From positions 62,001-126,000 of the forward strand of contig JAKVHY010000014.1 in assembly GCA_023284085.1 (NCBI GenBank): a DNA stretch of 64,000 nucleotides. The letters run 5' to 3'. Position numbers and translations under genes: made by a program. Shown one piece after another: positions 2,339 to 18,610 of this stretch (position 1 is its first letter; each line of letters begins with the position of its first letter). Under the pieces are notes generated by a model. It was not told where the DNA came from and made no database searches. It saw nothing but the letters and a program-made list of their open reading frames with translations. This stretch comes from Shewanella benthica (GTDB lineage Bacteria > Pseudomonadota > Gammaproteobacteria > Enterobacterales > Shewanellaceae).

Positions 2339-2351
2339 ACAAAAAATAAAG

Positions 2352-2369
2352 GAGGGCTGTAAGGCCCTC
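2352..2369. terminator. Hairpin terminator between convergent genes
   Basis: GAGGGC (2352-2357) pairs with GCCCTC (2364-2369) across a 6-base loop. On the minus strand the stem is followed by a T-rich run (CTTTATTTTTT), so it may end transcription in both directions between the Gp2-like gene and the recombinase gene. Confidence 0.6.
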
Positions 2370-2376
2370 TTGAAAC

Positions 2377-2937
2377 TTATATCTCAAGCTCAACGAAATC
2401 CTTGTCTACATCCTCTTGCGTGATGCCGATGTATCTTAGTGTCACGCCCTCAGAGCCATGCCTGAGCATTTTCATTACTCGGCCTATGTCTTTGGTCTTT
2501 TGATAAAGATGGTAGCCTCTGGTCTTACGCATGGAGTGTGTGCCTAGGGCCAGTTTTAGTTCTTCTCCCACGAGTTGAAATGCCTTCGTCACTGCGCGTC
2601 TTGTTAGCGGTTTGGCTTGGGAGTGTTTAGCTTGGTTATTTCGATAGGATTGAAATAGGTAGATGTGGTGAGGGTGCCTTGCCCTGACCTCTTCAACGGC
2701 CTTGATGACTTTGGGGTTCAGTTTGATGTTCGCAACTTTACCGGTTTTCATCTCTCTGAGGATGAGTCTGTCTTGCTGCAAGTCACTAAATTTTATCGAG
2801 AGAAGGTCTGAAATGCGCAGTGCGAGGTTTAATCCGATGTTCCACACGTCTGACATCTGTTTACTGTAACGAACTTCCAGCAAGTGACTAATGAGGTTGA
2901 TGGTGTCTAATTTCTTGATTGCCTGGACTTCTGCCAT
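2377..2937 (-). CDS. Short tyrosine recombinase (catalytic domain only)
   Basis: The 186-aa protein is a tyrosine recombinase catalytic domain. The first active-site Arg lies in LALRISDLL, the HxxR box is HSMRKTR, and LRHGSEGVTLRYIG holds the second His and the nucleophilic Tyr. It lacks the usual N-terminal SAM-like core-binding and arm-binding domains of full-length integrases (300-400 aa), so it is a minimal form, as found in some phage and satellite elements. It is distinct from the full-length integrase at the other end of the island. It might catalyse excision of a nested element, resolve dimers or act as an accessory recombinase; the target is unknown. Confidence 0.8.
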   Translation of the reverse strand: MAEVQAIKKLDTINLISHLLEVRYSKQMSDVWNIGLNLALRISDLLSIKFSDLQQDRLILREMKTGKVANIKLNPKVIKAVEEVRARHPHHIYLFQSYRNNQAKHSQAKPLTRRAVTKAFQLVGEELKLALGTHSMRKTRGYHLYQKTKDIGRVMKMLRHGSEGVTLRYIGITQEDVDKDFVELEI

Positions 2938-3022
2938 GTCAGGTTCCTTTTTTCTGATATACCGTGGAATGAGGACGCTTAGAGGCTCGGGGATAGTAGA
3001 ACCGCATGTAGCCTGGGTTTGC

Positions 3023-3051
3023 AGGTTCCCGTTTTACTAATATGGGAACCT
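3023..3051. repeat. Inverted repeat downstream of the DUF2787 gene
   Basis: AGGTTCCC (3023-3030) and GGGAACCT (3044-3051) form a perfect 8-bp inverted repeat with a 13-base spacer, between the recombinase start and the DUF2787 stop. There is no T-run on either side, so it is not a standard terminator. It could be a binding site for the adjacent recombinase. Confidence 0.45.
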
Positions 3052-3062
3052 ACATTGGTGGA

Positions 3063-3476
3063 TTAATCGATATTGCTGTGAACTTGATATACGTCCATGT
3101 TGTGGTAAGCCACAAAGTTGTCGCTAAACAGGTTAATGAGTGACTGACCTTCTTGCTCGCTTAGCCAGCCACTGTAGAGGCTGTATACCTGCTTGCGGTT
3201 AAAACAGATGTCAATCTGTTTGACTAATTCAGGGTAGGGTTGGCCGTGATAAGCAAAGTCTGTCACGTAAACTAAATGCCAATGTGCCTCATGTTTTTCT
3301 AATCTGACCTCAACGGGATGAAAGCCGCCGCTTTCAGCAGAGTGATCTGGGTCTCTAAAGTTAAGGGTGATAGCACTGGCTTCTTGGGGATTGATGTTGG
3401 TTAGTTCCTTTTCAATGAGCTGATAAAATTGAATCGGCATAGTGGGTGTTTGGTTACGGTTGATGGTGTGGGTCAT
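3063..3476 (-). CDS. DUF2787 family protein
   Basis: The 137-aa protein shows the DUF2787 signature around residues 37-57 (LNFRDPDHSAESGG followed by HPVE). This uncharacterised family is common in genomic islands of Vibrio and Shewanella, usually near radC-like genes as here. It has no signal peptide or membrane segment. It follows the YeeU-like antitoxin gene on the same strand, in the position where a YeeV/CbtA toxin would be expected, but its sequence does not look like CbtA. The biochemical function is unknown. Confidence 0.75.
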   Translation of the reverse strand: MTHTINRNQTPTMPIQFYQLIEKELTNINPQEASAITLNFRDPDHSAESGGFHPVEVRLEKHEAHWHLVYVTDFAYHGQPYPELVKQIDICFNRKQVYSLYSGWLSEQEGQSLINLFSDNFVAYHNMDVYQVHSNID

Positions 3477-3613
3477 TGTTTTTCCTTTTCATATATTGAA
3501 GGCAAGCGACTACAGCCTAAGAGTGGTTTTTAGGCATGGCGTGCTTGTGGGGTATAGGGGTGTTTATGTTGGGTGTTTAACTTCTGGGTGACGTGTGCAT
3601 GGGTGGGGTTGTA

Positions 3614-3970
3614 CTAGGGAGTGAGAGTCTCCGTGAGTGTGGCGATTGGATAGATAGCGATGTACAGGTAACCATGACTGCCTAAGGTATCGGCTTCACA
3701 AGTAAAGCCAGCGTGTTGCAGTGTGATGCTGCGCTGTTTACGTGCATCGAGATGGCCCAAAGACACCTGGTTTTCAAGTTGTTTGATGATGTCAGGAAAG
3801 GCGTTATCCAGCTGCCTCCCTTGCTCAGGTGTAAATGTACCGATAAAACCTGAGCGGTCCCAAAGAAAATCGAGTCCGCTTCCGTTTAAGATTAACCTTG
3901 CACCAAATCGTGGGGTGATAGTGCGTTGTAGTCCCCATTGATAGGGGCGTGATTGTTGATTGGCTGTCAT
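3614..3970 (-). CDS. YeeU/CbeA-type antitoxin (type IV TA family)
   Basis: The 118-aa protein matches the E. coli YeeU/YafW/YfjZ family from memory: WGLQRTITPRFGARL, a DRSGF segment, LDNAFPDIIKQLE and CEADTLGSHGYLYIAIYP all have direct counterparts there. Family members counteract the YeeV/CbtA toxin by stabilising MreB and FtsZ filaments rather than by binding the toxin. In E. coli CP4-type prophages the order is radC-like, antitoxin, toxin. Here a radC-like gene is upstream, but no CbtA-like frame follows, so the antitoxin looks orphaned. Confidence 0.8.
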   Translation of the reverse strand: MTANQQSRPYQWGLQRTITPRFGARLILNGSGLDFLWDRSGFIGTFTPEQGRQLDNAFPDIIKQLENQVSLGHLDARKQRSITLQHAGFTCEADTLGSHGYLYIAIYPIATLTETLTP

Positions 3971-4021
3971 GGTGAAACTCCTCGTTGATGGAAGTGGAGA
4001 TGTTAGATGTGTTGCAAGGGC

Positions 4022-4402
4022 TTAGGTGTGGGTACTCCAGTTGGGCTTTGTATTGTTGCCATGGTTGAAGTAGATGCCGTTTATTGAGCGTTTCCATTGT
4101 TCTGTGGGTTGACCTTCGCCATTACAAACACAGGTAAATCGGCAAAAACCAATTTCCTTGGGCAGGTGCTCTACCATGTCCCTTGGGGAGACGAAGAGTA
4201 CTGTCTTATGCAGTGTGGGATTAGGCTTGATAATGGGCTTGCCAATTTCTTGGCCGATGTCATTGAGCGGCCTGACAAACATGGGCAAGACTAGCTCGAC
4301 CATCAGTCGCTTTGTTAAGTCGGGAAATGCGGCGCAGGCTTCAGCTACGCATGCTTGTGAAAAACTGTCTGTAAATTCAATCACGCTTACTCCTGGTGTC
4401 AT
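4022..4402 (-). CDS. Unknown 126-aa island protein
   Basis: I do not recognise this protein. It lies between the RadC-like gene and the YeeU-like gene on the same strand, with 51-53 bp gaps, so it is probably in the same transcript. It is soluble and has three cysteines in the central and C-terminal half (CRFTCVC near residue 90), which might bind metal. It does not resemble KlcA/ArdB antirestriction proteins or DUF987, which occupy similar positions in CP4-like prophages. The ribosome binding site is weak. Confidence 0.55.
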   Translation of the reverse strand: MTPGVSVIEFTDSFSQACVAEACAAFPDLTKRLMVELVLPMFVRPLNDIGQEIGKPIIKPNPTLHKTVLFVSPRDMVEHLPKEIGFCRFTCVCNGEGQPTEQWKRSINGIYFNHGNNTKPNWSTHT

Positions 4403-4455
4403 GAGGACCGCAGTGTGGACTCTGGGTGAGTCGTGTGCTGCGTTGAGAGGAGCGG

Positions 4456-4914
4456 CTATAACAGGCCTCGCTCGGCAAAGGAGACTGGGGTACGACCGAT
4501 GATGATGTGGTCCAAGACTCGAACGTCAATCAGCCCTAAAGCATCAGTTAATCGCTTCGTTATCTGTTTGTCTGCTGAGGAAGGTTCAGTTTCACCTGAA
4601 GGGTGGTTATGAGCGAAAATGACTGCAGAAGCGTTGACGGCCAATACGGCTTTGACCACTTCTCTAGGGTAGACGTGTGCAGTGTCGATGGTGCCGAAGA
4701 ACAGTTCATTGAATTCAATGAGCTGATGTTGGTTATCTAACATCATGACGGCGAACACTTCACGCTCATATCCAGCAAGCTTATAGGTTAAGAATTCTTT
4801 CGTTGCATCTGGGTTATTGAACGCATTTTTGTTGATGTATTTTTCTGCAATGATGCGAGCTGCTGAGCCAAGGATATCCATGGCTGTTGTCGGTGCATTG
4901 TTGGGCGTATGCAT
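4456..4914 (-). CDS. RadC-like JAB-domain protein (island copy)
   Basis: The 152-aa protein is the JAB/MPN domain of RadC without the N-terminal helix-hairpin-helix part. The zinc-binding JAMM signature HNHPSG followed by an Asp about 10 residues on (SSADKQ) is intact, and it ends like RadC (VSFAERGLL). Such short copies (YfjY/YeeS/YkfG type) are typical of CP4-like prophages and integrative islands. A second, full-length chromosomal radC lies at 29823-30500. It leads a minus-strand run with the unknown gene, the antitoxin and DUF2787. Its biochemical activity is not established. Confidence 0.85.
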   Translation of the reverse strand: MHTPNNAPTTAMDILGSAARIIAEKYINKNAFNNPDATKEFLTYKLAGYEREVFAVMMLDNQHQLIEFNELFFGTIDTAHVYPREVVKAVLAVNASAVIFAHNHPSGETEPSSADKQITKRLTDALGLIDVRVLDHIIIGRTPVSFAERGLL

Positions 4915-5067
4915 GTCTCAGTTCCTTGTGGTGGTTCTTAGGGCTATTCACTGAGTTAATATAGGTTTGAAGTGAGTTCGAGTGAGCGAAGAACTGGATT
5001 TGCGTGAAGTTGTATTGGGATTGTGAAAGGTTTGAAGGGAGGAGGGCGAGTTAAAAAATACCGTCTT

Positions 5068-5093
5068 GGGTAATTAAATGAGATTAATAACCC
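5068..5093. promoter_or_regulatory. Imperfect palindrome upstream of alpA
   Basis: GGGTAATTAA (5068-5077) and TTAATAACCC (5084-5093) form a near-perfect inverted repeat (9 of 10) ending 10 bases before the alpA start. It also lies between alpA and the divergent radC-like operon. The position suits an operator controlling one or both; the binding protein is unknown. Confidence 0.4.
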
Positions 5094-5103
5094 GGACTTC
5101 AAA

Positions 5104-5304
5104 ATGAATTTACTCAGATTAAAAGATGTTATCAAGTGTACTGGCTTAGCACGTTCAACCATTTACAAGTTTATGGACCAAGGGGCTTTCCCTAAACCCG
5201 CGCCTTTGGGGGCAAGAGCGGTTGCATGGGTAGAAGATGAAGTACAGGAGTGGGTGTTCGCGAGGATAGAAGAGCGTGACTTGGAAAATGATACGCTATC
5301 CTAA
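5104..5304 (+). CDS. AlpA-family regulator / excisionase-like protein
   Basis: The 66-aa protein is a typical AlpA: LLRLKDVIKCTGLARSTIY is the MerR-like winged helix-turn-helix start, followed by FPKPAPLGARAVAW and a WV..RIEERD tail. AlpA proteins activate excision of CP4-57-type prophages in E. coli, and related small proteins act as recombination directionality factors in mobilizable islands. Here it probably controls excision of the island by the integrase at 20223-21434, or transcription of neighbouring genes. There is no good ribosome binding site upstream. A hairpin follows at 5326. Confidence 0.85.
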   Translation: MNLLRLKDVIKCTGLARSTIYKFMDQGAFPKPAPLGARAVAWVEDEVQEWVFARIEERDLENDTLS

Positions 5305-6033: not shown

Positions 6034-8193
6034 ATGATGGATAGTAGGCCTTATCTCAGTTCATCATTTGATGACCTCAATCAAAAATCTCATTCTTGTG
6101 ATAGTGATATCATAGTTCTCCAAAAAATCCTCCATGAGTTAACTTTTCGCAAGAAAAATAAAAGATCACCAGACCTTTCTAGTGCTATTCGTGATCGCAT
6201 TCAAAGCCTTAGTAGTTACTCGTCAGTTGCCGATGAATCTGGAAGTAAAGCGCAATCTTATGACTCAATTATTAGTGAAGTATGTATAAATCAAGCTGAA
6301 AATATACCTAAATATTGGGATCCGGAGCAAAGAGTTATTATTGAGCTCAATGCTGATGAAAGTAAGATTGTTGAAGCTGGACCGGGTACAGGAAAGACTG
6401 CTGTAGCCTGTGCTCGAGTAGCTTATTTGATCGAAAAGTGTGGTCTCGAAGCGTCAAAAATATTCTTGATTAGTTTTACTCGTACAGCGGTGAAAGAGCT
6501 TCGAGATCGAATTGAGGCTTTTGCTCAAGATTCAATTAATGTTGCAGGATTGCAAATCTTCACGCTCGATTCCTTTACTTGGCAGGTTCTTAGAGGGTTA
6601 GGTGATGATACAGCCGATCTAATGAGCAGCTATGAAATGAATATAAATAAGTTGATTGAGCAGTTGAAACATGGCGACTATCACTTACTGGATTATCTAG
6701 AAGAGTTTGAGCATGTTGTTCTGGATGAAGGGCAGGATTTGGTGGGTGAAAGGGCCGACTTAATATTGCAGATTATAAGTCGGCTGGAAGAGGAATGCGG
6801 AGTAACAATCTTTGCTGATAGTGCCCAGGCTATTTATGGTTTCACAGATGATTCTGATTTGAGTGACAGTTATAAATCTCTTACAGTTGTAGAGCGAATT
6901 ATGGAGGGGGAGTTGGATGGGATTGATAGAATCAAGCTTACTAATGTCCATCGGACCAATGATCCCCAATTAATAAAACTTTTCAAAGGTGGTCGTGAAA
7001 GGTTGCTTGATAAAAAAGAAAGTGATGTCGACGGTTGGTTGAGCATGAAACAGCTGATTAAAGAGTGTTCACATGGTGACGTCGAACGAATAAATAAGCA
7101 AAATCTTAGAGGGAAAAGAGATCATTTGGTGCTCTTTCGAACTCGTGCTGAGGTGTTAATAAATTCCTCTTATCTATGGTCTGATGACGTTGTACATAAA
7201 CTTCGTATGTCTGGTATTTCTCAACGTATACATCCTTGGATAGGACGATTGCTAGGTCAATATGAAGGTGATTTTTTAACTAAAGACGAATTTAATGGTT
7301 TATGGGCCACAAGAATTGGAAAAGACAATAACAGCTTCTTTCCACACAGAGAGGACTCTTGGAATCTACTTCTGAATAATGTCGGAGATAAGAATGATAG
7401 AGTCAGGATTGTACGCTTGCGTGAGATTCTTACTCGTGAAAGACCTCCTATAGACTTTCTTGTTGATGAAAGTCAATTAGCTGGCCCTGTACTTGGGACT
7501 ATCCACGCATCTAAAGGGCGTGAGGCAAATCAAGTTCATTTGATGCTTCCTCCTGATGATTTTATTGAGGGTAATATGCTCTCTCCATATGCTCAATCCC
7601 CCAGAAAGATTGCTGAAGAGGAGCGGGTTTTATTTGTCGGGGCTACCAGAGCAAAACAGAAACTAATGGTGGGGAAAGGTCAAAAAACGTATGCATCTAG
7701 GTTAGACAGTGGCCGTAGTTATAAAAAGCCTACTAACGGAAAACATCGGCGTATGGTTGAAGTAGGGCTTGTTGGTGATATTGATTCCCAAAGTATAGTA
7801 GATGGGCGCTTAGGCATTGATATCAATTATATACAAGACTGGTTTTGGCATCATGCAGCTAAGAAAGTAGAAGCTGAAGCTATTTTTGATTATAAGTTAC
7901 AAGCGAGGGTGTTGTTCGCTAAAGATGATGGTATTCCTGTTGCTTTATTAAGTAATTCTTTTAATCAAGATATTTGGAAGTTAGCAAAAACAGTAGCAAA
8001 AAAAGAAGGCTTTAAAAAACTTAAACCAAGTAAAATAATTAATAACATTAAGATAGTTGGTGTCACTACCATTGTGATCCCTGAAGTTCATCGTAGTAGC
8101 TTACCAGCCCCGTGGTGCCATAGTGGTTTTTTGATTGTGCCAGTTATTACAGGCTTTCCCATGGTCTATTTCAACCAATGGAATGAAAAATAA
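6034..8193 (+). CDS. UvrD-like superfamily 1 helicase of DISARM-like operon
   Basis: The 719-aa protein is an SF1A helicase. Walker A GPGTGKT is near residues 116-122, followed by SFTRTAVKEL (motif Ia). LDEGQD (motif II) is near 230, LGTIHASKGRE (motif V) near 490 and FVGATRAKQ (motif VI) near 535. About 110 residues of unknown function precede the motor, and about 150 follow it. It is the first gene of a four-gene run; the next gene starts 1 base after its stop. UvrD-like helicases unwind or strip DNA, and here it presumably acts in phage defence. It is not a standard DISARM subunit that I recognise, so its presence marks this as a variant. Confidence 0.85.
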   Translation: MMDSRPYLSSSFDDLNQKSHSCDSDIIVLQKILHELTFRKKNKRSPDLSSAIRDRIQSLSSYSSVADESGSKAQSYDSIISEVCINQAENIPKYWDPEQRVIIELNADESKIVEAGPGTGKTAVACARVAYLIEKCGLEASKIFLISFTRTAVKELRDRIEAFAQDSINVAGLQIFTLDSFTWQVLRGLGDDTADLMSSYEMNINKLIEQLKHGDYHLLDYLEEFEHVVLDEGQDLVGERADLILQIISRLEEECGVTIFADSAQAIYGFTDDSDLSDSYKSLTVVERIMEGELDGIDRIKLTNVHRTNDPQLIKLFKGGRERLLDKKESDVDGWLSMKQLIKECSHGDVERINKQNLRGKRDHLVLFRTRAEVLINSSYLWSDDVVHKLRMSGISQRIHPWIGRLLGQYEGDFLTKDEFNGLWATRIGKDNNSFFPHREDSWNLLLNNVGDKNDRVRIVRLREILTRERPPIDFLVDESQLAGPVLGTIHASKGREANQVHLMLPPDDFIEGNMLSPYAQSPRKIAEEERVLFVGATRAKQKLMVGKGQKTYASRLDSGRSYKKPTNGKHRRMVEVGLVGDIDSQSIVDGRLGIDINYIQDWFWHHAAKKVEAEAIFDYKLQARVLFAKDDGIPVALLSNSFNQDIWKLAKTVAKKEGFKKLKPSKIINNIKIVGVTTIVIPEVHRSSLPAPWCHSGFLIVPVITGFPMVYFNQWNEK

Positions 8194-8194
8194 T

Positions 8195-11100
8195 ATGCCA
8201 GATAAACAGTACTTGATTAACCGTCTAGCTCAAGACCTTATAGGACCGTTAAAAGATGATGAGCTACTATTCTCCTATCCCACCGATGTTTACTTAACAG
8301 GAATTTTATTTCCGCCCAAAAGTGATATTGCTGACGAAGAGTGTGATGAGCTCCAAGCTGAAGGTGGAGTAGGACATGATACTAATGTTCAGGGAAAGGG
8401 CGAAGTGTCTCTTGCAACTGTCAAGCGTCCAGCGAGTGCAGGCATATCTTTCGTTGTAAATAATAGTAAAACACCAGTGATTAATATAGAAGTCCGAGGA
8501 GCCATATATAGGCAAGAAGAAGAGTCGGCAAAGTTAGTGGAGGAAAATGGAGTTGGGATTAGAAAGGTTCCTTGGCGCCGAAAAGCGTTTAATACTTCTA
8601 TTTCCACTATAGCACTTGATTTAGGCTCAAAAGATTACCCACCATCAGTGACTGGGATAGAAGGGCTTGGTTTACATATTCGAACTAGTATCTGGGACAC
8701 TCGCTTATTAGTTACCGTTGCAATGATTAATCAACATAAGGTACCTGAAGTCTATGAGCGTACAAGTTATGAGGAGATTAGTTTTTTTCAAACTGAACTA
8801 GAAGTAACGACTGCTCTTGGTACTCAATTCTGCTCTAAGCCATTAGCAGGGTCTGCAATAGATGAAGATACACGTATGGCGCAACTTATTTACAGAGATG
8901 TAAAAGAGTATGCCGTTGGCCACACCTGTTCTGCTTATTGGGAGGAGTCAGAAAATCATATAAGTAAAGTTTTCTCTACTTGGTTGCCTTCAAGTAAGGT
9001 TAAATCAATGAGTAGCGAAGGGGTCAGAGAGTTTAGACCATTATCAGAGCAAGGTGTATTAAGTACGAAATGGCTATCAGAATCGAGTGGTGATGAGTTG
9101 GTCGCTGGTTTAAGGAAATTACCAAACTTATATTTTGAGTGGTATACGGCTCAAGCTAAGCAGATTGATGATTTGGAAGATGGACTTAAAGAGCAAGCAT
9201 ATAAGCATATAAATAATGCTGATAACGTACGTAATCGTATTGAGCAAGCCATTAATCTTATTGAAAAAGATAAACAAGTTGAAACTGCTTTTAGGCTTGC
9301 CAATAAGGCAATTCAGCTACAACGTACTTGGGCTGCACCATCAGAGGAAGATGCCCTCGTATGGTATCCATTTCAGTTAGGCTTCTTCTTACTTACTCTC
9401 GAATCCGTAGCGGATGAACATCATGAGGATAGAAATGTTGCCGATCTTCTCTGGTTCCCTACCGGAGGTGGTAAAACAGAGGCTTACCTTGGGTTGGTTG
9501 CATTTACACTATTTTTAAGGCGAATGCGCTATGGTGAAGCAGGAGCTGGTGTAGCTTCGTTTATGCGTTATACCTTAAGGCTGCTCACCGTTCAGCAGTT
9601 TCAACGTGCTGCGGCATTAATTTGTGCTTGCGATGCCCTCCGCCAACATCATGAAATGCCTGTAGATATACAGGAAAACTTAACTTCTATCCCTTTCTCT
9701 TTAGGTTTATGGGTAGGTGCTGATACAACCCCTAATAAGTTTAAAAATGCAGTAGTTGCAATGGCAGATTCTGCTGCTAAAAATAGACCGGATCAACTCA
9801 AATACTGTCCACGTCATATTAATACACTGCTGAAATGGCATGTGGATAAATCGAGGCAGGAAGTAACAGCGCACTGCGATGACCCCAAATGTTTATGGCA
9901 TAAAAATCCTTTGCCAATATGGACAATTGATGAAAATATTTATGAGAAGAAACCATCATTAGTTATTGGAACTATTGATAAGTTTGCTCAAATTGCCCGC
10001 AATCCTAAGACCACGCAGTTATTTGGTCATAATTCAATCTATCGTCAGCCTGATTTGATTATTCAAGATGAACTGCATTTGATCTCAGGCCCTTTAGGGA
10101 CTCTAGCTGGAATCTACGAGGTAGCAATCGATAAGCTATGTAGTCATGGCACCGTAATCCCTAAAATTATTGCATCGACAGCAACAATTAGACAAGCGTC
10201 TGCACAAATTCGTGCCTTATTTAATCGTGATACTTGTTTATTTCCACCTCCAATTTTAGATGCTCGTAACTCAGGTTTTGCCATCGAAGATAAGGACTCT
10301 CCTAGTCGACAGTACTTAGGGATTACAACTGCAGGTAGGTCCGCTAAATTTGCTCTTCAGGCCGTTGCAGCAAGTCTTATGCAAGGAGTAACATCTGATG
10401 TGATAAGCGATGATGCTCGTGATGATTTTTGGACTATGGTGACTTATTTTAATTCACTTCGAGAATTAGGCGGAGCACTAGTCTTAATGCAAGATGACGT
10501 TAGTAATTCTTTAATTGATTACGCAGCTCGTAGAGGTGAATTGCCTAGGAGTATTAGTGAGCCGATGGAGCTGACCAGTCGTGTTAGTTCATCTGAGATA
10601 AAGAACTACCTTGACCAATTGGCGACAAAATATAATGAACCCGGGGCTTGCGATGTGGTTTTAGCTAGCAATATGCTTAGTGTCGGTGTCGATGTGCCAA
10701 GGCTTGGCACCATGATTGTTAATGGTCAACCGAAGGGCGTTGCCGAGTATATTCAATCTACCAGCAGAGTTGGTCGCCGTCGTGGGGGACCCGGGGGCTT
10801 GGTATTGACAATTTATAATAATGCCAAGTGCCGAGATCGTTCACATTTTGAAACTTTTAGCTCTTGGCATTTAGCTCTTTATCGAGAAGTCGAAGCGACT
10901 AGTGTTACACCATTTGCACCACGTTCTCGTGAAAAAGCCTTGCATGCAATATTGGTTATTTTAGCCCGCCACTTAATTCCAGAACTTAATGAGGGAGTTT
11001 CAGTAGTCGGAGATTATCAAGATAAGCTTGAGGAGTTTATAGAATACATTGTAGACCGTGCCGAAGATATTGATCCTGAAGAGGCGCAGAATGTGAATTA

Positions 11101-11323
11101 TGACCTTCAAGGCTTTCTTGAGCAGTGGATCGGGAATGGTAGTGTTTATACACAATACTGGAGTGATAGAGCTTTTAATAGAAGTCTGATGCTATCAGCG
11201 GAAAAAGCTGCCGAGATTAAATCTCGCTCAGGGGTGTATAAAGGGCGAGCGATACCAACACCAAACTCTATGCGTAATGTAGAGCCCAGTTGTCTTTATG
11301 TTCTTGAAGAAAAACTAAGGTAA
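8195..11323 (+). CDS. drmA: DrmA-like helicase (DISARM core)
   Basis: The protein is a large SF2-type helicase of about 1042 aa. Walker A is FPTGGGKTEAYLG near residue 422, the DEAD-type box reads IQDELH near 623, STATI follows as motif III, and NMLSVGVDVPRLG and STSRVGRRRGG near 840-860 are motifs V and VI. The GGGKTE form, QDELH box and length fit DrmA of DISARM. It is directly followed by a DUF1998 DrmB-like gene, the hallmark pair. I chose the ATG at 8195, just after the upstream stop. An in-frame ATG at 8183 and a longer frame from 8135 would overlap the helicase gene. In DISARM, DrmA and DrmB form a DNA-engaging complex that recognises free DNA ends. Confidence 0.82.
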   Translation: MPDKQYLINRLAQDLIGPLKDDELLFSYPTDVYLTGILFPPKSDIADEECDELQAEGGVGHDTNVQGKGEVSLATVKRPASAGISFVVNNSKTPVINIEVRGAIYRQEEESAKLVEENGVGIRKVPWRRKAFNTSISTIALDLGSKDYPPSVTGIEGLGLHIRTSIWDTRLLVTVAMINQHKVPEVYERTSYEEISFFQTELEVTTALGTQFCSKPLAGSAIDEDTRMAQLIYRDVKEYAVGHTCSAYWEESENHISKVFSTWLPSSKVKSMSSEGVREFRPLSEQGVLSTKWLSESSGDELVAGLRKLPNLYFEWYTAQAKQIDDLEDGLKEQAYKHINNADNVRNRIEQAINLIEKDKQVETAFRLANKAIQLQRTWAAPSEEDALVWYPFQLGFFLLTLESVADEHHEDRNVADLLWFPTGGGKTEAYLGLVAFTLFLRRMRYGEAGAGVASFMRYTLRLLTVQQFQRAAALICACDALRQHHEMPVDIQENLTSIPFSLGLWVGADTTPNKFKNAVVAMADSAAKNRPDQLKYCPRHINTLLKWHVDKSRQEVTAHCDDPKCLWHKNPLPIWTIDENIYEKKPSLVIGTIDKFAQIARNPKTTQLFGHNSIYRQPDLIIQDELHLISGPLGTLAGIYEVAIDKLCSHGTVIPKIIASTATIRQASAQIRALFNRDTCLFPPPILDARNSGFAIEDKDSPSRQYLGITTAGRSAKFALQAVAASLMQGVTSDVISDDARDDFWTMVTYFNSLRELGGALVLMQDDVSNSLIDYAARRGELPRSISEPMELTSRVSSSEIKNYLDQLATKYNEPGACDVVLASNMLSVGVDVPRLGTMIVNGQPKGVAEYIQSTSRVGRRRGGPGGLVLTIYNNAKCRDRSHFETFSSWHLALYREVEATSVTPFAPRSREKALHAILVILARHLIPELNEGVSVVGDYQDKLEEFIEYIVDRAEDIDPEEAQNVNYDLQGFLEQWIGNGSVYTQYWSDRAFNRSLMLSAEKAAEIKSRSGVYKGRAIPTPNSMRNVEPSCLYVLEEKLR

Positions 11324-11330
11324 AAATGAC

Positions 11331-13169
11331 ATGCCAGTTAATGAAGTAGGTAAGGTTCGCCAAAGTGCAGTCATCATGAACTATGGGTCTGGAGCTATAG
11401 TGGATTTTCGAGTACCTAGTACCGGAGCGGCTGTTTCTATTGTTGCCGGAGGGCTAGAGCAGTGGACTAAAAAACTCAATGAAGCTGGGGGCTCTTCGCA
11501 AGATATGAAACGTTTAACAGAACCGCGTTTGGCTGAAAAACTTAAGGTCTCACATTTTCGTTTACCTCCAGTTTGTCCTGATAATCCACAGGAGGGTGAC
11601 GTTGTCATTCCGCTTGTGGGGGCTAGATTTCCTAGTTGGCTTCAATGTCCTGCTTGTAATACTGTTAAACCTGCACGTAAGTGGGGAAGCGAACCGGGTA
11701 ATCCATCACGGTTTTGTAGTCCCTGTAGTTTAAAGTTAACTTCTGATATTAAAGCATATGTAGTTCCTGTCAGATTCGTTGTAGCCTGTCGTAATGGTCA
11801 TTTGGATGATTTTCCTTGGTCTGAATGGGTACATCAAAATTCACAATGCAGGTCCAAGGAATTTAAGCTTAAATCTGAAGGGCCGGGACTAGCTGGTTTA
11901 TTTTTAAGCTGCCCTAAGTGTAAACAACGTCGCTCTATGGAACATATTTTTACGAAAGAGGCACATGAAGGAAGAGGGTGTAAAGGTGATCGCCCTTGGT
12001 TGTCTGATGGTCGAGAAGATTGTCAGCAAAAGCCTATTTCAATGCAAAGAGGTGCATCCAATCTATATTTTCCCATTATGGAGTCGGCATTAGTTATTCC
12101 TCCTTGGTCAGAAGAAGTTATTCGTCAGTTGGGCTATCGCTGGAATGATATTGTCACAGCTGTTTCTGCAGAAATGAGAAGTAATTATATCGATGCAATT
12201 TGGGATAAGCTTGTTGATGATGTAGGTGATATTGATATAGCTACGTTTAAAATTTTGGTAGAAGAAAAAGTTGTGGATTCTAAAGCTGCTAGTAGTGGCA
12301 ATTTACGTTGGGATGAATATCAACAATTCATGGTCGCCAGTGGTCGAACGGTAAAATCTGGTGATGAGTTTGAAGTTAGAGTTGAAACACCTTCTACAAG
12401 TATTCCTCATTTAGCCAATCTTCAGCGTGTTGTAAGCTTACGTGAAATACGTGTTCTTCGTTCATTTACTCGTATAGAGCCTTTGCCTGGCAATCCACCA
12501 GTTAAGCAACAGTTTTTATCTCATAACAGAATGGGGTGGTTGCCAGCAATAGATGTAAGAGGAGAGGGTATATTTATAGCGCTTGAAAAAAGTCGCCTCA
12601 AAAAATGGGAATTAAATAGAGCTGTTACTAACAGGGCTGCTGAAATTACAACTTATTCAGAGAGTCGTGTACTCAATCCTGACAATATTAGTGAGTTTAA
12701 AGTTAGTCCTGAGCTAGCTGCGCGTTATTTGTTATTACATTCCTTGGCTCATATTTTGATGAAACAACTTTCCCTTCAATGCGGTTATTCATCGGCATCT
12801 TTGCGCGAACGGCTTTATCTCGGTGAAGGTGATAAGGATATGGCCGGTATAATGATTTATACGGCAACTAGTGATTCTGACGGAACTTTGGGAGGGCTAC
12901 AGCGACAAGGGCAATCGGCACGATTTACTCCAATGTTTATAGAGGCTATTAGGTCCCATGAATGGTGTTCATCAGATCCACTTTGTATAAAGGGTTTAGT
13001 CGCTGCGACGGAGTCATCGACATTAGCTGCCTGTCATAGTTGTTTATTAGTACCGGAAACTTCCTGTGAAGACTTTAATCGGTTTCTTGATAGAGCTATG
13101 TTGATTGGTACACCTGAAGATCGCAGTATCGGCTTTTTTACTGACTTACTGTCTAAAGGAACTAAATAA
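11331..13169 (+). CDS. drmB: DrmB-like DUF1998 protein (DISARM core)
   Basis: The 612-aa protein starts with VRQSAVIMNYGSGAIVDF, the usual opening of DrmB. It carries cysteine pairs that look like zinc ribbons (CPACNTVKP near residue 108, FCSPCSL near 129, CPKCKQRR near 195). It has the DUF1998 block HSLAHILMKQLSLQCGYSS near residues 470-490, and a terminal C..C pair (AACHSCLL). It begins 7 bases after DrmA. DrmB partners DrmA in DISARM and stimulates its DNA binding and ATPase. The assignment rests on the opening motif, the DUF1998 block and the neighbour. Confidence 0.82.
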   Translation: MPVNEVGKVRQSAVIMNYGSGAIVDFRVPSTGAAVSIVAGGLEQWTKKLNEAGGSSQDMKRLTEPRLAEKLKVSHFRLPPVCPDNPQEGDVVIPLVGARFPSWLQCPACNTVKPARKWGSEPGNPSRFCSPCSLKLTSDIKAYVVPVRFVVACRNGHLDDFPWSEWVHQNSQCRSKEFKLKSEGPGLAGLFLSCPKCKQRRSMEHIFTKEAHEGRGCKGDRPWLSDGREDCQQKPISMQRGASNLYFPIMESALVIPPWSEEVIRQLGYRWNDIVTAVSAEMRSNYIDAIWDKLVDDVGDIDIATFKILVEEKVVDSKAASSGNLRWDEYQQFMVASGRTVKSGDEFEVRVETPSTSIPHLANLQRVVSLREIRVLRSFTRIEPLPGNPPVKQQFLSHNRMGWLPAIDVRGEGIFIALEKSRLKKWELNRAVTNRAAEITTYSESRVLNPDNISEFKVSPELAARYLLLHSLAHILMKQLSLQCGYSSASLRERLYLGEGDKDMAGIMIYTATSDSDGTLGGLQRQGQSARFTPMFIEAIRSHEWCSSDPLCIKGLVAATESSTLAACHSCLLVPETSCEDFNRFLDRAMLIGTPEDRSIGFFTDLLSKGTK

Positions 13170-14828
13170 ATGGCCAAAATGTTTCCTAAAAAATTACCCT
13201 TAGAAGTATTAAGTGAGCCTAAACGGTCTTCTGAAGTACAAGTATATAATGCTTTGAGGGAGCAATTGGATGACGATTATCATGTTTTCTATTCCAGTCC
13301 ATGGTTGGGTACGAACAGCGATGGTAGTGAGATCGATGGTGAGGCTGATTTTTTAGTTGCTCATTCGGAAAAAGGAATCCTTTCGATAGAGGTAAAGGGC
13401 GGGATTGTTGAAATAGATAGTGATGATAACTGGACTAGTACAGATAGATACAAGATTAAACGACATATTAAAAATCCAGTAAACCAAGCCCGTAGTAGCA
13501 AGCACCAGCTTCTTAAGAAACTCAAAGAATCTTCGTTATGGTCAACACGTTATATTTGTGTTCGCCATGGCGTAATTTTGCCGCATAGTGCTCGCCCTAG
13601 TCGTGATTTACGTCCAGATATGCCTTTAAATTTATTCGCTTTTGATACCGATATGGTAAGACTTAAAAATTGGGTTGATGAACGTTTTCAGTCTTTAGAT
13701 AATGGTGGCAGAGTAGAAAAGCCTCTGGGGATTGATGGGCTTTATGCTTTAGAAGATATGCTTGCTCGTGTTATAAAATTACGTGTACGTCTTGGGACTA
13801 ATGTTAATCAGGATCTTAAAGAGATTGCGCTAAAAACAAATGATCAAATTTTTATATTACGTGAAATGGAGGCTAATAACCGTATGGCTATCGCTGGTGC
13901 TGCAGGTACAGGGAAAACAATCCTTGCTATTGAAAAAGCAGTACAGCTAAACGATCAAGGAAAGAGGGTTTTATTGCTCTGTTTTAATCGTCCATTAGGT
14001 GGGGAGTTAAGGCGAACTTTTAAGGATTACCCTTCTGTAACTGCTACTCATTATCATCAGTTTTGTAGGGATGTTGCTTCAGGTGTTAAGAGATTCGGTT
14101 CCAGTTCTGAATTAGTTGATAATTTCATTGATAACTTCACTGAGGCTGGTCTTGAAGAGTTTGATGCTGTAATCATTGATGAAGGCCAAGATTTTAAAGA
14201 TGATTGGCTAATGGCTTTAGAGGTCGTCATTAAAGATAGTAGCAACGGTGTTTTATACATTTTTTATGATGATAACCAGAATGTTATGACGTCGAATGCT
14301 AGTTATATCAAAGCCCTACCATTAGCAAAGCATACTTTAACTCGAAACTTTCGCAATACAGAATCAATTTTCAAAATGGCAAAGCAATACTATAGAGGGG
14401 ATTTCGTTCGGCCAATAGGCCCTCGAGGCACAAAGCCGATATTGCACAGCATTAATAATGAAGCCGAATTGAAAGTTAAACTTGCAGAAAGGGTTGGGAG
14501 TCTGACAAAAGCTGAAGGATTAAATTATGGTGATATAGCAATATTATTTCCCTGTGAGAAAAGTATGAAATGTATGAGTGATGGCGCTAAACTTCGAGTT
14601 GGGCGACACAGTGCTTCAGATGCAGAGAATAGAAGTAGTGATCATGTTGTTATTGATACTATTCGCCGCTTTAAGGGATTAGAAAGTTCAGTTGTCTTGA
14701 TGGTAGTTAACAGCGAAACCAGTAATCGAGATGAATTATTGTACACTGGTATAACGAGGGGGCAGGCTATTTTGGAAATTTTTGGCCCCTCACATGTTTT
14801 GCACCAACTTGAAAAGAATAATGTTTAA
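13170..14828 (+). CDS. NERD nuclease domain fused to UvrD-like helicase
   Basis: The 552-aa protein starts immediately after the drmB stop. Residues ~20-130 form a NERD (nuclease-related) domain with GEADFLVAH and LSIEVKGG, the D...ExK pattern of PD-(D/E)xK nucleases. Residues ~230-540 form an SF1 helicase: AGAAGTGKT near 242, CFNRPLG, IDEGQDF near 336, LTRNFRNT, RFKGLES and TGITRGQ. In this operon it occupies the slot where canonical DISARM carries drmC, a phospholipase-D-like protein, and it may supply the nuclease activity instead. The catalytic triad looks intact by eye. Confidence 0.83.
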   Translation: MAKMFPKKLPLEVLSEPKRSSEVQVYNALREQLDDDYHVFYSSPWLGTNSDGSEIDGEADFLVAHSEKGILSIEVKGGIVEIDSDDNWTSTDRYKIKRHIKNPVNQARSSKHQLLKKLKESSLWSTRYICVRHGVILPHSARPSRDLRPDMPLNLFAFDTDMVRLKNWVDERFQSLDNGGRVEKPLGIDGLYALEDMLARVIKLRVRLGTNVNQDLKEIALKTNDQIFILREMEANNRMAIAGAAGTGKTILAIEKAVQLNDQGKRVLLLCFNRPLGGELRRTFKDYPSVTATHYHQFCRDVASGVKRFGSSSELVDNFIDNFTEAGLEEFDAVIIDEGQDFKDDWLMALEVVIKDSSNGVLYIFYDDNQNVMTSNASYIKALPLAKHTLTRNFRNTESIFKMAKQYYRGDFVRPIGPRGTKPILHSINNEAELKVKLAERVGSLTKAEGLNYGDIAILFPCEKSMKCMSDGAKLRVGRHSASDAENRSSDHVVIDTIRRFKGLESSVVLMVVNSETSNRDELLYTGITRGQAILEIFGPSHVLHQLEKNNV

Positions 14829-14869: not shown

Positions 14870-14890
14870 CCGCCATAGTAGATATGGCGG
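14870..14890. terminator. Terminator between defence operon and methyltransferase
   Basis: CCGCCATA (14870-14877) pairs with TATGGCGG (14883-14890) over a 5-base loop, followed by GCTTTATG. It lies between the stop of the NERD-helicase gene and the stop of the convergent methyltransferase gene, which suits a shared terminator. Confidence 0.6.
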
Positions 14891-14926: not shown

Positions 14927-16312
14927 TTATGCCACTTTCGCTTGAGTCCTGTTTATTTGTTTTGCCTGTAATATTCGAGACTTCATTAGTTCTGCAACAG
15001 CTGTAAACACGGGAATAATAACTGAATTACCAAATTGACGATATGCTTGGGTATCTGATACAGGAATAATAAAGTCGCTGCATTTAGGTTTATCAAATCC
15101 CATTAGGCGAGCGCATTCTTTAGGCATGAGCCTACGGGGCCTATTGTTTTGGTTTTCTTGATTTGAAAAGTCTTGTTCTCCGAGTATTTTATCCCACCCT
15201 TGGTCGATTAAAATCTCTGAACCGTCTTTATGGTAGCGAGCAGATAAAGTTCTGGTTACTACGTCACTATTTTTTGGGTCTACTAAACCGTAGCCAAAAC
15301 CATTGCCTTTAGCCTTATGCTTTTTTGCGTAACCATATAGATATTCCCATAAACGTGGAGTCAGGGTATATCTTGCCTTTTCTTCTTCAGTAAGGTTATC
15401 AAGTAAGCTTGCAAAGGAGGGAACAGTCTCAGGAAAGTGAATGTTTTTAAGCGAAAATCCTTTAGTAATATTTAAATCTCTTTTGAAACCAACTAGTATA
15501 ATTCTTTCCCTGTGTTGAGGAAGGAAGTGTTTGCCGTCAATAATTTTAGGATCTTTCGTTCCAGATCCCTCAAACTCAATATCTGCCACGTCATAACCTA
15601 ATTCATCAAGTGCTTGGGTTATTATTTTAAAAGTATTGCCATGGTCATGACTTTTTAAGTTTTTAACATTCTCAAGAACAAATGTGCTCGGTTGTTTAGC
15701 TTTGATAATTCTGCAAACATCGAAAAATAAAGTGCCTTGAGCTTCGCATTCGAAACCATGTGCTCTGCCAAGAGAGTTTTTCTTTGATACTCCAGCAAGT
15801 GAGAAGGGCTGACAAGGAAAGCCTGCAAGAAGCACGTCATGGTCAGGAATGTGCTTTTGTATATTATTTGTAGCTTCAGTTTCAGAAACCGTGTCACTTT
15901 TATCTGTTAGAGTTATTTCACGTATATCTTGGTTAAAAGAGTGCTCTTCAGGATCACTGTAGTAATTAGCTTTGTATGTACGAACTGCATACTTGTTCCA
16001 TTCGCTAGTAAAAACACATTTACCACCAATAGATTCAAAGCCTTTACGTATGCCACCAATCCCGGCAAACAGGTCTATAAACTTGAAATCAGGGTTATCA
16101 TAGTGTTTAGGACGTTTGGGTAAGAGGCCTTTTAGAATACGGGTCTCTTCATTGGTAAGACTCTTATCTGACTTTCCTTTCAAAATACGGTTGATGGTTT
16201 CTCTACACCAGTCATTTTCAGTCCATGGATTTAGCTTGGCTGCGATTTGCTTTTGGTCATATATTTCGAGAAGTGTAGTGAGTAATTTAAGTGTTTTTTC
16301 GTTGCTAGCCAT
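14927..16312 (-). CDS. DNA cytosine-5 methyltransferase, Dcm/M.EcoRII type
   Basis: The 461-aa protein has all the main C5-methyltransferase motifs: [10 protein letters not shown] (I, residues 78-87), GFPCQPFS (IV, catalytic Cys167), ENVKN (VI, 214-218), PQHRERI (VIII), a target-recognition stretch, [13 protein letters not shown] (IX) and QFGNSV (X). The ~75-residue helical N-terminal extension is like that of Dcm and M.EcoRII, enzymes that methylate the inner C of CCWGG. A divergent EcoRII-type endonuclease gene 206 bp away makes it the protective partner of a restriction system. Because it also lies beside drmA/drmB, it could double as the DrmMII-type methylase of the DISARM-like module. 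Confidence 0.92.
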
Positions 16313-16518: not shown

Positions 16519-17766
16519 GTGTACGAAACATTAGAAGATATTTTTGAGGCTGTAGCAGTCAAGTACCTAAAAGCAGTTGATGTAAAAAGAGGTAACAATA
16601 ACAAAAAGGGCTCAAACCAGCATGAAATCGGTGGGTTAGTTAAAGCAGGGCTTGGACGAAAACTCGGTTTAACTAATGATGGAACCATCTTAAATTTCTC
16701 CGCCAAAATGGTATATATCTCTGATGACGAAAGTGAACCGGTTGTCTGTGAAGATACCGTTTCGTGGTATGACACCCGTTATAAGGACCCCTCAAGGGGC
16801 GCAGAGTACAGGCTTTATTATCATGATAATGAAGTTACACAGAGTTTTAGAGAAAGTGACTTTTTGTTGATAGCGCTTACAAAAGATCAAACATTGCTTC
16901 TTATTTTTGCACCAAAAGATAGTTCGGCAGAGGTTCAACTCAAGAGTATCTTTGGGGCCTTAAATCTTGATATTAATACAGCCTTGATAAATATTCCTGT
17001 CAATGAGACCTCTTTGGTCATTCCTGTGCGACTAGTATTAGCTCAGCTTGGTATCGATGTTAATACTTCAAAAGAAGATGATGAAAGTAAGCTTACTGAG
17101 CTACTAAATCGGTTTGATTCAAACTTTCCTAAAACACGTGTTTTTTCTGATTATTCACGAGAATTAGTTCAAAGTGAAATTTGTGCTGTTGAAGACCCAG
17201 ATCAAACTTTACTTGCCTGGATGGAAGCTGAAGAGCAAAATTTCAGATTGCTCGAAAGGCACATTGTATCTGAACAGCTGAAGCTAGGATTCGGAGCTTC
17301 AGGGCATGACGTTGACGCTTTTATCAAGTTTTCTCTTAGTGTTCAGAATCGTAGGAAGTCTCGGGCTGGACATGCTTTTGAACATCATATAGAGGCTATT
17401 TTTATAGCAAATAACCTTTCTTATAAGCGTGGTGGTAAGTCAGAGGGGAAGCAGACTCCAGACTTTCTCTTTCCAAGCCAAGAGGCATATCAAGATGGCA
17501 ATTTTGATGAGAGTAAACTGAGGATGTTAGGTGCTAAAACATCGTGTAAAGATAGGTGGAGGCAAGTACTTGCAGAAGCAAAGCGCATTGAGATAAAGCA
17601 TCTTTTAACTTTGGAGCCTTCTATTTCTGAAGAGCAAACAAAACAAATGGCAAGTTTAAAGCTTCAGTTAGTTGTCCCAAAGCCCCTTCATGAAACATAT
17701 TCCTCTAATCAATTAAATTATTTGCAGACATTAAAGAGCTTCATAGATGAAGTTCAAGCTCTTTAA
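16519..17766 (+). CDS. EcoRII-type type II restriction endonuclease
   Basis: The 415-aa protein has the length and two-part layout of EcoRII (404 aa): an N-terminal effector-binding half and a C-terminal catalytic half. The catalytic half reads RAGHAFEHHIEAIF, TPDFLFPS (314-320), LGAKTSCKDRWRQVLAEAKR (337-356) and KHLLTL. These are the conserved EcoRII-C blocks, with a PD...xK arrangement (Asp315, Lys340). EcoRII cleaves before CCWGG and needs a second site as allosteric effector. The start codon is GTG with AAGG about 10 bases upstream. It diverges from the cognate methyltransferase, which should protect host DNA. Confidence 0.88.
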   Translation: MYETLEDIFEAVAVKYLKAVDVKRGNNNKKGSNQHEIGGLVKAGLGRKLGLTNDGTILNFSAKMVYISDDESEPVVCEDTVSWYDTRYKDPSRGAEYRLYYHDNEVTQSFRESDFLLIALTKDQTLLLIFAPKDSSAEVQLKSIFGALNLDINTALINIPVNETSLVIPVRLVLAQLGIDVNTSKEDDESKLTELLNRFDSNFPKTRVFSDYSRELVQSEICAVEDPDQTLLAWMEAEEQNFRLLERHIVSEQLKLGFGASGHDVDAFIKFSLSVQNRRKSRAGHAFEHHIEAIFIANNLSYKRGGKSEGKQTPDFLFPSQEAYQDGNFDESKLRMLGAKTSCKDRWRQVLAEAKRIEIKHLLTLEPSISEEQTKQMASLKLQLVVPKPLHETYSSNQLNYLQTLKSFIDEVQAL

Positions 17767-17800
17767 AATTGAAATGAAGACTTGGGGGAGGGGGCGGAGC

Positions 17801-18610
17801 ATGGCAGGTAACTTGAATAGAGAGCTGATAGAAGTGGGTTATTTTTTATCTCGTCTGGGAGTGGATAAACCTCCCCAAGCTTTGAAAGCTACTAGCTGGA
17901 AGGAAGCATATTCAAAATTTTATTCATCATTTGGAATCTCAAAAACAGAAGAGGGGTTTAGAAATAGTCTGAAAAACTTGAGGGACCATTTTGATAGTCA
18001 TATTGATAACTCGCGAGTTGGCTGGATGAATGAGGCTGGATATCCGCAAGAATTATCTCAGATAAATCAGCAAGTCTTTGATGATTTAGAGAGATTAGAT
18101 GAGAAAAAATTATGGAAAAAAATTCAACCCTATGCAGTAACCTCTTATAATTCAAAACTAGCTAAAAGCAAGAACAATGAAGTAAACGAGAATGGATTGA
18201 AATTCTTTTCGTCAGAGTTTAGTGGTACCACAATATTTTCTGGTAGAGAAGAGGGATTTGCGACAGTAGAGCATGGCATGATTGTAGATCATCTGAAAGA
18301 CTGGGGTGAAGAAAGGTTCCCAAACCAAGTTATCTATAATACTCAAAAAGTTGATTTGGCGATTGAAATTTCTGGTACGTTAGAACATATTTTTGAAGTT
18401 AAAACCTCACTTGATACCCAATCAATTTATACCGCCGTGGGACAACTTTTTATGCATACAGCAGGAAATAATAATCTGTTGAAGTGGATAGTTTTACCTG
18501 AAGTTGGTTGTAAAAATGAATTAATAGAGTGCTTTAAGTTATTGGGACTAAGAATTTTGTTATTCAAGGTTATCGACGGAGTTGCCAAGTTCAAAGTTAT
18601 AAACCATTAA
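17801..18610 (+). CDS. Putative PD-(D/E)xK protein downstream of EcoRII-like enzyme
   Basis: The family is not recognised. The 269-aa protein is mostly helical in its first ~140 residues. The C-terminal half has a nuclease-like pattern: VDLAIEI (Asp185), HIFEVKTS (Glu199, Lys201) and VGQLF (Gln ~214), as in PD-(D/E)xK folds with a trailing Gln. I chose the ATG at 17801, which has a strong GGGGGAGGGGG/CGGAG ribosome binding site. The longer frame from 17747 would overlap the endonuclease gene. It is probably co-transcribed with the restriction enzyme. It may be a second nuclease or a restriction accessory protein. Confidence 0.65.
   Translation: MAGNLNRELIEVGYFLSRLGVDKPPQALKATSWKEAYSKFYSSFGISKTEEGFRNSLKNLRDHFDSHIDNSRVGWMNEAGYPQELSQINQQVFDDLERLDEKKLWKKIQPYAVTSYNSKLAKSKNNEVNENGLKFFSSEFSGTTIFSGREEGFATVEHGMIVDHLKDWGEERFPNQVIYNTQKVDLAIEISGTLEHIFEVKTSLDTQSIYTAVGQLFMHTAGNNNLLKWIVLPEVGCKNELIECFKLLGLRILLFKVIDGVAKFKVINH

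What the first reader, a model, noticed from the sequence alone, without database searches (positions are those of the whole stretch)
6034..14828. DISARM-like operon with two UvrD-type helicases and a NERD nuclease in place of drmC
The drmA-drmB pair (GGGKTE/QDELH helicase followed by a DUF1998 protein) is the DISARM core. Canonical class 1 adds drmD, drmMI and drmC; class 2 adds drmE, drmMII and drmC. Here none of drmC, drmD or drmE is seen. Instead the pair is bracketed by an SF1 helicase with ~110-residue N- and ~150-residue C-terminal unknown regions and a NERD-helicase fusion, all in a run with gaps of 1, 7 and 0 bases. This may be a distinct, self-contained system sharing the DrmAB engine.
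Basis: partly seen in the sequence, partly recalled or inferred. Interest (0 to 1): 0.88.

Follow-up and report, generated by a model that had tools for sequence, protein, structure and literature searches.

The report
DISARM variant with extra helicase and nuclease
A four-gene bacterial operon keeps the two-protein motor of the anti-phage system DISARM but pairs it with a different helicase and a different DNA-cutting enzyme; the same set recurs in distant bacteria, so it looks like a real branch of a known defence family that we did not find described.

Summary
Window 6034-14828 encodes U (UvrD-type SF1 helicase), DrmA, DrmB and N (NERD nuclease-SF1 helicase), gaps 1, 7 and 0 bases if drmA starts at 8195. 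DrmA and DrmB match the solved Serratia DISARM pair; DrmA is below both NCBIfam DISARM cut-offs. No DrmC, DrmD, DrmE or DrmMI gene was found beside it.

It is not a one-off. U lies just upstream of DrmA in 74 of 130 loci examined (60 of the 80 nearest genome loci; a biased sample) and in 25 of 26 rows of the window's DrmA clade, the exception being a contig edge. Distances of U, A, B, N correlate at 0.90-0.95 over 26 loci. U's C-terminal domain was found in 3 of 789 genomes, each time beside DrmA. U is not detectably DrmE; N fills the drmC slot.

Such a methyltransferase occurs in 18 of 26 loci but is poorly co-inherited (r 0.38, 119). The operon lies on a probable yicC island (113-116).

Verdict: new variant of a known kind; mechanism inferred, no activity shown.

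The parts
6034..8193 (+). U: UvrD/Rep-like SF1 helicase, 719 aa; motor about residues 90-555, own C-terminal domain about 549-719; residues 1-25, 42-47, 59-89 and 271-276 have pLDDT under 50
   Evidence: PF00580, PF13361; AF2 model mean pLDDT 85.2, best chains UvrD (Z up to 31.8); Walker A G118, G120, K121 and D231, E232, Q234, D235 invariant in the 46 aligned rows
7678..8190 (+). U C-terminal domain, found only beside DrmA in the genomes sampled
   Evidence: AF2 pLDDT 95.5; no Pfam family matched by more than 1 of 46 members; profile hits 2 of 398 and 1 of 391 genomes, all beside DrmA
8195..11323 (+). drmA: YprA-family SF2 helicase (alternative ATG 8183; frame open from 8135)
   Evidence: NF038325 892.6 bits, PADLOC DrmA 4.9e-208; 7s9v_A E 3.8e-141
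11331..13169 (+). drmB: DUF1998/MZB protein
   Evidence: NF038324 479.7 bits, cut-off 240; 7s9v_B E 9.5e-86
13170..14828 (+). N: NERD nuclease domain (about residues 21-124) plus SF1 helicase, in the drmC position
   Evidence: PF08378; PADLOC RTasNERD-Hel, C3a187; E22, E58, D60, E74, K76 identical in 26 of 26 aligned N proteins
14870..14890 (+). possible terminator stem after N, in the gap to the convergent dcm gene
   Evidence: 9 such sites found against 8.0 +- 2.8 in shuffles, so weak
14927..16312 (-). Dcm-type m5C methyltransferase; candidate self-marking partner
   Evidence: NF007772 786.9 bits (cut-off 710); PADLOC oMTase 7.1e-205, MTase_II 2.3e-204, DrmMII 9.2e-114
16519..17766 (+). EcoRII-C type restriction endonuclease; probably a type II pair with the methyltransferase
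   Evidence: PF09019 226.8 bits

Best explanation
A DISARM-like anti-phage (anti-foreign-DNA) system. Inferred from homologues: DrmA and DrmB form the DNA-translocating core that loads on exposed 5'-overhang DNA and is damped by base methylation, as reported for Serratia DrmAB. Inferred here: U, an SF1A-type motor (3'-to-5' by analogy with UvrD) with a private C-terminal domain, joins the core at DNA ends or forks, and N supplies the nuclease (NERD) with its own motor, in the place taken by DrmC in canonical DISARM. The product would be a RecBCD/AddAB-like end-processing machine that unwinds and degrades unmarked DNA, with the neighbouring m5C methyltransferase (here a Dcm/EcoRII pair) marking self. 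Shown: gene content, conserved order, correlated distances, intact predicted catalytic residues. Not shown: complex formation, any enzymatic activity, phage defence, the role of methylation.
For: DrmA and DrmB each hit only the Serratia DISARM sequence among solved chains. U-A-B-N order in Azospirillum, R. rhizogenes, R. ruizarguesonis and Shinella records and in 17 of 56 U-bearing genome loci with at least 3.6 kb downstream; loci with U and N come from Alpha- and Gammaproteobacteria, Bdellovibrionota, Balneolota, Acidobacteriota, Chloroflexota, Bacillota and Melainabacteria. Distances of A, U, B, N correlate 0.897-0.950 (26 loci, 0 of 2000 permutations each). Predicted NERD residues intact in 26 of 26. 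U model is a UvrD fold. DrmC can occupy the N slot: L097 is U-A-B-DrmC. m5C methyltransferase in 18 of 26 loci. Methylation and 5'-overhang sensing of Serratia DrmAB: passages of PMC9142583.
Against: DrmA misses both NCBIfam DISARM cut-offs. N was not detected in 39 of 56 U loci of the genome set; in the actinomycete branch a sacsin/SF2 gene stands before U and mostly no N follows, so N is not essential to the class. Even in the window's own clade L024, L025 and L103 have the downstream sequence but no N. The methyltransferase is poorly co-inherited (r 0.375) and 8 of 26 loci show none in the stretch held, so self-marking by m5C is unproven; in the window it may serve only EcoRII. Four U loci (L014, L031, L039, L051) also carry class-1-like D and M1 genes, so U is not exclusive to an N-type composition. 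No phage data. The permutation test does not remove shared species history.
Confidence: 0.55

Rival explanations
1. Two adjacent modules: a U-DrmA-DrmB system, and an independent NERD-helicase defence gene of the kind also found with defence reverse transcriptases, placed downstream during island assembly.
For: N's best PADLOC model is RTasNERD-Hel from reverse-transcriptase defence loci; N was not detected in 39 of 56 U loci; N-family helicases stand upstream of DrmA in other clades.
Against: N starts at the base after drmB ends; N distances track A (r 0.934), B (0.925) and U (0.897) over 26 loci; in the window's 26-row DrmA clade, 18 of the 22 rows with at least 3.6 kb downstream carry N (includes the near-duplicate pairs L012/L015 and L021/L145).
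Confidence: 0.2
2. A class 2 DISARM in which U is a diverged DrmE and N replaces DrmC; nothing more than a divergent member.
For: Halobacterium class 2 is DrmE-DrmA-DrmB-PLD with a convergent cytosine methyltransferase, position for position like the window; the window methyltransferase matches a DrmMII model 9.2e-114.
Against: No homology of DrmE to the U profile: hmmsearch -2.0 bits, hhalign probability 0.1 percent (one DrmE sequence only); DrmE-bearing DrmAs lie in other clades; no DrmC.
Confidence: 0.15
3. A DNA repair operon, not defence: two repair helicases plus a nuclease working with a YprA-like helicase.
For: UvrD and NERD families include repair-type enzymes (recalled); the preprint PMC12458937 puts one YprA branch in repair (passages).
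Against: Patchy: none of 98 other relatives carries U (96 of them match only with generic helicases, best 38 bits); probably on a mobile island and on plasmids elsewhere; DrmA and DrmB fit DISARM models; restriction genes adjacent.
Confidence: 0.1

Closest known systems
DISARM class 1 (Serratia DrmAB; DrmD, DrmMI, DrmA, DrmB, DrmC)
   Same: DrmA-DrmB pair, A then B, matching solved 7s9v chains
   Different: No DrmC, DrmD or DrmMI beside it; the DrmA alignment starts at chain residue 182 against residue 56 of the open frame, so it appears to lack the long N-terminal part (called EVE-like in PMC12458937); U and N added
DISARM class 2 (DrmE, DrmA, DrmB, DrmC, DrmMII)
   Same: One large gene upstream of drmA, a nuclease downstream of drmB, convergent m5C methyltransferase (L139)
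   Different: U shows no homology to DrmE; NERD-helicase instead of a PLD nuclease
ARMADA type II (Bell et al. 2025 preprint, PMC12458937)
   Same: YprA-family helicase system that includes a GajB-like helicase (section 5 read)
   Different: [quoted passage not shown] the window has a split DrmA/DrmB and a DISARM-type DrmA
TALON (same preprint)
   Same: YprA-like helicase plus a NERD nuclease
   Different: TPR-CSD and TBP genes and a fused RNase H-like domain; an ARMADA-like, not DISARM-like, helicase; no UvrD gene is mentioned in the sections read
Gabija (GajB) and RT-associated NERD helicase
   Same: Nearest PADLOC profiles of U and N
   Different: No GajA or reverse transcriptase match among the ten window ORFs scanned; U has a C-terminal domain of its own

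Membership tests
DISARM type I (PADLOC definition, PMC9252829 passages) | DrmA and DrmB present | tested here: met
DISARM type I | DrmC present | tested here: not met
   no DrmC hit in ten window ORFs, six genes either side or 3.5 kb downstream; one DrmC model in the genome: best 21.5 bits, another contig
DISARM type I | DrmD and DrmMI present | tested here: not met
   neither home-made profile hits within 8 kb; one DrmD model finds only a 969-aa SNF2-type frame (112.8 bits) and weaker hits on other contigs, and also rings in all 14 control genomes
DISARM type II | DrmE present | tested here: not met
   0 matches in the genome to one DrmE model, PDLC02636; U not homologous to a DrmE. All PADLOC models were scanned for U, but only the best 25 of 49 hits were shown
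DISARM type II | DrmC present | tested here: not met
DISARM type II | DrmMII (m5C methyltransferase) | tested here: inconclusive
   adjacent m5C methyltransferase matches DrmMII 9.2e-114 but fits orphan/type II models better and pairs with EcoRII
DISARM_other (PADLOC: _other models generally need two components co-localised) | two DISARM components side by side | tested here: met
   DrmA + DrmB 7 bases apart; PADLOC itself was not run, only its models
NCBIfam DISARM DrmA models NF038325/NF038326 | score over curated cut-off | tested here: not met
   892.6 of 950; 669.7 of 999
NCBIfam DrmB family NF038324 | score over curated cut-off | tested here: met
   479.7 of 240
HIRAN domain (U C-terminus) | PF08797 match or clear fold match | tested here: inconclusive
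   five HLTF HIRAN entries among the top eight VIA rows at Z 3.6-4.0, all far below the noise level of 8, with TBP rows at about the same Z; PF08797 not among the 15 families matched by any of 46 members; hhalign probability 1 percent
DISARM | broad phage restriction with self-protection by methylation | not testable with these tools
   needs bench work

The most novel reading that the evidence does not exclude
U-DrmA-DrmB is the core of a third, widespread DISARM class, in which a dedicated UvrD motor with a private, possibly HIRAN-like (DNA-3'-end-reading) C-terminal domain delivers DNA ends to DrmAB, while the effector slot is filled interchangeably (NERD-helicase, DrmC, or other genes) and upstream partners vary by phylum (Hsp70 mostly in Bacillota, a sacsin/SF2 protein mostly in Actinomycetota).
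Probability: 0.4. Interest if true: 0.72.

Novelty: new variant of a known kind. Interest (0 to 1): 0.58.

Why it matters
DISARM's nuclease has been puzzling because DrmC is often missing and appears non-essential (passages of PMC9142583). A branch in which a NERD nuclease-helicase takes that place, next to a third motor that is near-constant within its clade, makes 'who cuts, and who loads DrmAB' testable in one compact four-gene operon. It would also tell annotation tools to look for a class that fits neither PADLOC type I nor type II.

Tried and rejected
U as DrmE: no profile support (one DrmE sequence). L124's 801-aa gene upstream of drmA as a DrmE reference: no PADLOC or NCBIfam model matched it, so it was not used as proof. 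One DrmE model to gather class 2 loci: 0 of 6 records and 0 of 398 genomes at E <= 1e-20; Halobacterium L139 was used instead. P0001 alone in viral contigs and genome contigs found no relative; the DrmA alignment A1 was then used. U C-terminal fold: Foldseek gave 0 matches at E <= 0.001, VIA at most Z 5.2 (top row 3k2y, which I recall as HIRAN-like; the Rad5 rows are also recalled to hold HIRAN). The HIRAN lead did not pass sequence tests (of five HIRAN stretches the L151 one was probably picked in the wrong frame, and one search had three on the wrong strand). Promoter scan no better than shuffles.

Counting errors corrected: one search labelled 66 of 127 rows U; several Streptomyces rows lacked U only because an antisense ORF was chosen, and a first six-frame count missed U where the DrmA frame was over-extended. 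One search, with a 250-bit threshold (generic UvrD/Rep: 114-139 bits), gives 60+6+6+0+1, and with the window 74 of 130. That includes the near-duplicates L012/L015, L021/L145 and L098/L099; L087 passes at 251. Three of 130 DrmA frames, under 900 aa, were left out of the tree. L015, L099, L145 were dropped before the distance test, which includes L065 (U downstream) and L089 (a gene between B and N). The U, N, C, D, E, M1, M5, S and H70 profiles were built from these same loci. The tree is a quick search with SH-aLRT only and flags long branches. L132 (3.4-kb contig) was left out of the random-sample flanks. No background rate for m5C methyltransferases was measured.

Literature: none of the papers listed (25 of 56 listed) showed U-A-B-N in its listing or in the passages read. 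Passages or sections were read of PMC12458937, PMC9142583, PMC11090510, PMC10270631, PMC10952713, PMC5704561, PMC7251935, PMC9252829. Figures and supplements were not seen, so the operon drawings and tables of PMC12458937 may show it; PMC11090510 announces a later paper on McrBC with a DISARM-like system. The original DISARM paper was not read.
Full report
Check of the observation. The four ORFs, their strand and their close spacing are as described. Profile scans identify a UvrD/GajB-type SF1 helicase (U), DrmA, DrmB and a NERD-SF1 helicase fusion (N). Among solved chains, DrmA and DrmB each match only the Serratia DISARM sequence of 7s9v/7s9w (E 3.8e-141 and 9.5e-86). DrmA stays below the NCBIfam DISARM cut-offs, DrmB passes its own.

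Directly downstream lie a convergent Dcm-type m5C methyltransferase (14927-16312) and an EcoRII-type endonuclease (16519-17766), then a 287-aa gene without a Pfam, PADLOC or NCBIfam match. The block probably sits on an island: a 14-bp repeat at 49-62 recurs at 21640-21653 in the 3' end of yicC, beside an integrase gene at 20223-21434. By my own estimate about 0.6 shared 14-mers are expected by chance in that search, so the evidence is the place of the repeat, not its length. yicC islands are on record in Shewanella (PMC8978831, start of abstract in the listing); the host here is unnamed.

Is the set conserved? tblastn with U in plasmids found the same four-gene order in Azospirillum ramasamyi, two Rhizobium rhizogenes plasmids and R. 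ruizarguesonis, and, by my own ORF call, in Shinella; Tsukamurella has U-A-B followed by a DEAD/DEAH-box helicase and a gene annotated 'restriction endonuclease subunit M'. A scan of genome contigs with a DrmA alignment returned the best 80 of 589 loci, and viral contigs 18. Six-frame scoring found U within 1.5 kb upstream of DrmA in 60 of the 80, 6 of 18 viral loci, 6 of 6 plasmid loci chosen by U, 0 of 16 plasmid loci chosen by DrmA as references, 1 of 9 random Pseudomonadota loci, and the window: 74 of 130. Of 56 U loci in the genome set with at least 3.6 kb downstream, 17 carry N; of the 60 U loci, 35 carry the sacsin/SF2 gene upstream and 7 an Hsp70 gene (identities).

Tree. In a quick DrmA tree of 127 rows, the window falls in a 26-row set (SH-aLRT 99) with U in 25; the exception, L023, has only 143 bp upstream of DrmA. 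A mostly Bacillota clade of 9 rows (Hsp70-U-A-B, often N) and a mostly actinomycete clade of 35 rows (S-U-A-B) also carry U. The 13 rows with DrmD- and DrmMI-like genes but no U (class 1) and the rows with DrmE-like genes (class 2) lie elsewhere; but four U rows, Tsukamurella and three Mycolicibacterium, also carry D- and M1-type genes, so U is not tied to one accessory set. L097 shows U-A-B with DrmC in N's place; its downstream gene matches DrmC 8.2e-30.

Co-inheritance. Over 26 loci with all four genes, pairwise distance correlations are A-U 0.929, A-B 0.943, A-N 0.934, U-B 0.950, U-N 0.897, B-N 0.925, with 0 of 2000 permutations as high for each. For the 18 loci with an m5C methyltransferase, A against methyltransferase gives 0.375 (8 of 2000), against 0.947 for A-U on the same loci. 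So the four genes travel together, and the methyltransferase is a frequent but exchangeable neighbour. No background frequency of m5C methyltransferases was measured, and shared species history was not removed.

Rarity and specificity. DrmB occurs in 11 of 398 Pseudomonadota genomes, the window's included; of 9 others with usable flanks, one is window-type (it is the same locus as L021). The U C-terminal profile hits 2 of 398 Pseudomonadota genomes (the window's and that same one) and 1 of 391 genomes in the class of G102 (G102 itself), each beside DrmA. Two of these three are the genomes around which the samples were drawn. None of 98 other relatives of the host carries U; their best hits, generic helicases, reach 38 bits.

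Anatomy of U and N. The U model (mean pLDDT 85.2) aligns to UvrD at Z up to 31.8 over about residues 90-565. Residues 549-719 fold confidently alone (pLDDT 95.5) without a clear known fold. Five HLTF HIRAN entries, which I recall as DNA-3'-end readers, are among the top eight weak rows (Z 3.6-4.0), but TBP rows score about the same and sequence tests do not support HIRAN. Motor residues of U are invariant in the 46 aligned rows; N's predicted nuclease residues E22, E58, D60, E74 and K76 are identical in 26 of 26.

Comparison with what is known. By the PADLOC rules (passages of PMC9252829) the locus fails type I (no DrmC, DrmD, DrmMI) and type II (no DrmC, DrmE) and fits only the catch-all pairing rule. 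The nearest architecture is class 2 of Halobacterium: DrmE-A-B-PLD with a convergent m5C methyltransferase; U stands where DrmE stands and N where the PLD nuclease stands, but U is not detectably homologous to DrmE. Bell et al. 2025 (PMC12458937; [quoted passage not shown] this is presumably one of those, and their figures and tables, not held here, may show it. The searches made did not turn up a description of U-A-B-N.

Mechanism. From the Serratia work (passages of PMC9142583) DrmAB prefers 5'-overhang DNA and is slowed by methylation. I infer that U and N extend this core into an end-processing helicase-nuclease, with N as effector and m5C as one possible self mark. The order, correlated distances and intact residues are shown; complex, activity and defence are not.

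Verdict. 

Noticed in passing
window 49-62 and 21640-21653: 14-bp direct repeat flanking the region; the right copy is in the 3' end of yicC (21633-22496, minus) beside an integrase (20223-21434): the operon probably rides on a yicC-inserted genomic island of about 21.6 kb.
   Followed up: partly
window 1700-5301: Island backbone genes: YagK/YfjJ family, an integrase-domain ORF of 186 aa (2377-2937), DUF2787, CbeA antitoxin, RadC, AlpA.
   Followed up: partly
window 17747-18610: 287-aa gene overlapping the EcoRII gene; no Pfam, PADLOC or NCBIfam match.
   Followed up: no
L037, L041, L044, L054, L067, L069, L083, L100: Mostly Bacillota loci place an Hsp70-like gene (about 480-515 aa; the L044 frame is 781) directly before U.
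   Followed up: partly
L042:1920-6548 and relatives: About 1,570-aa protein upstream of U in actinomycetes: N-terminal similarity to TmtA/sacsin and a C-terminal SF2 helicase.
   Followed up: partly
L011, L013, L017-L019, L021, L025, L096, L103: Divergent pair upstream of U: an SNF2-type helicase and a roughly 1,000-aa partner (its L013 member matches no Pfam or PADLOC model at the cut-offs used).
   Followed up: partly
L054:14993-17104: A UG19-type defence reverse transcriptase stands right after DrmB where N stands elsewhere.
   Followed up: no
L126:6138-9959: 1,273-aa protein with an MzaA-like sigma-70 domain directly before a DrmA gene in Streptomyces fungicidicus.
   Followed up: no
L080: The U gene appears split over reading frames in this Streptomyces assembly (assembly error or broken gene).
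   Followed up: no
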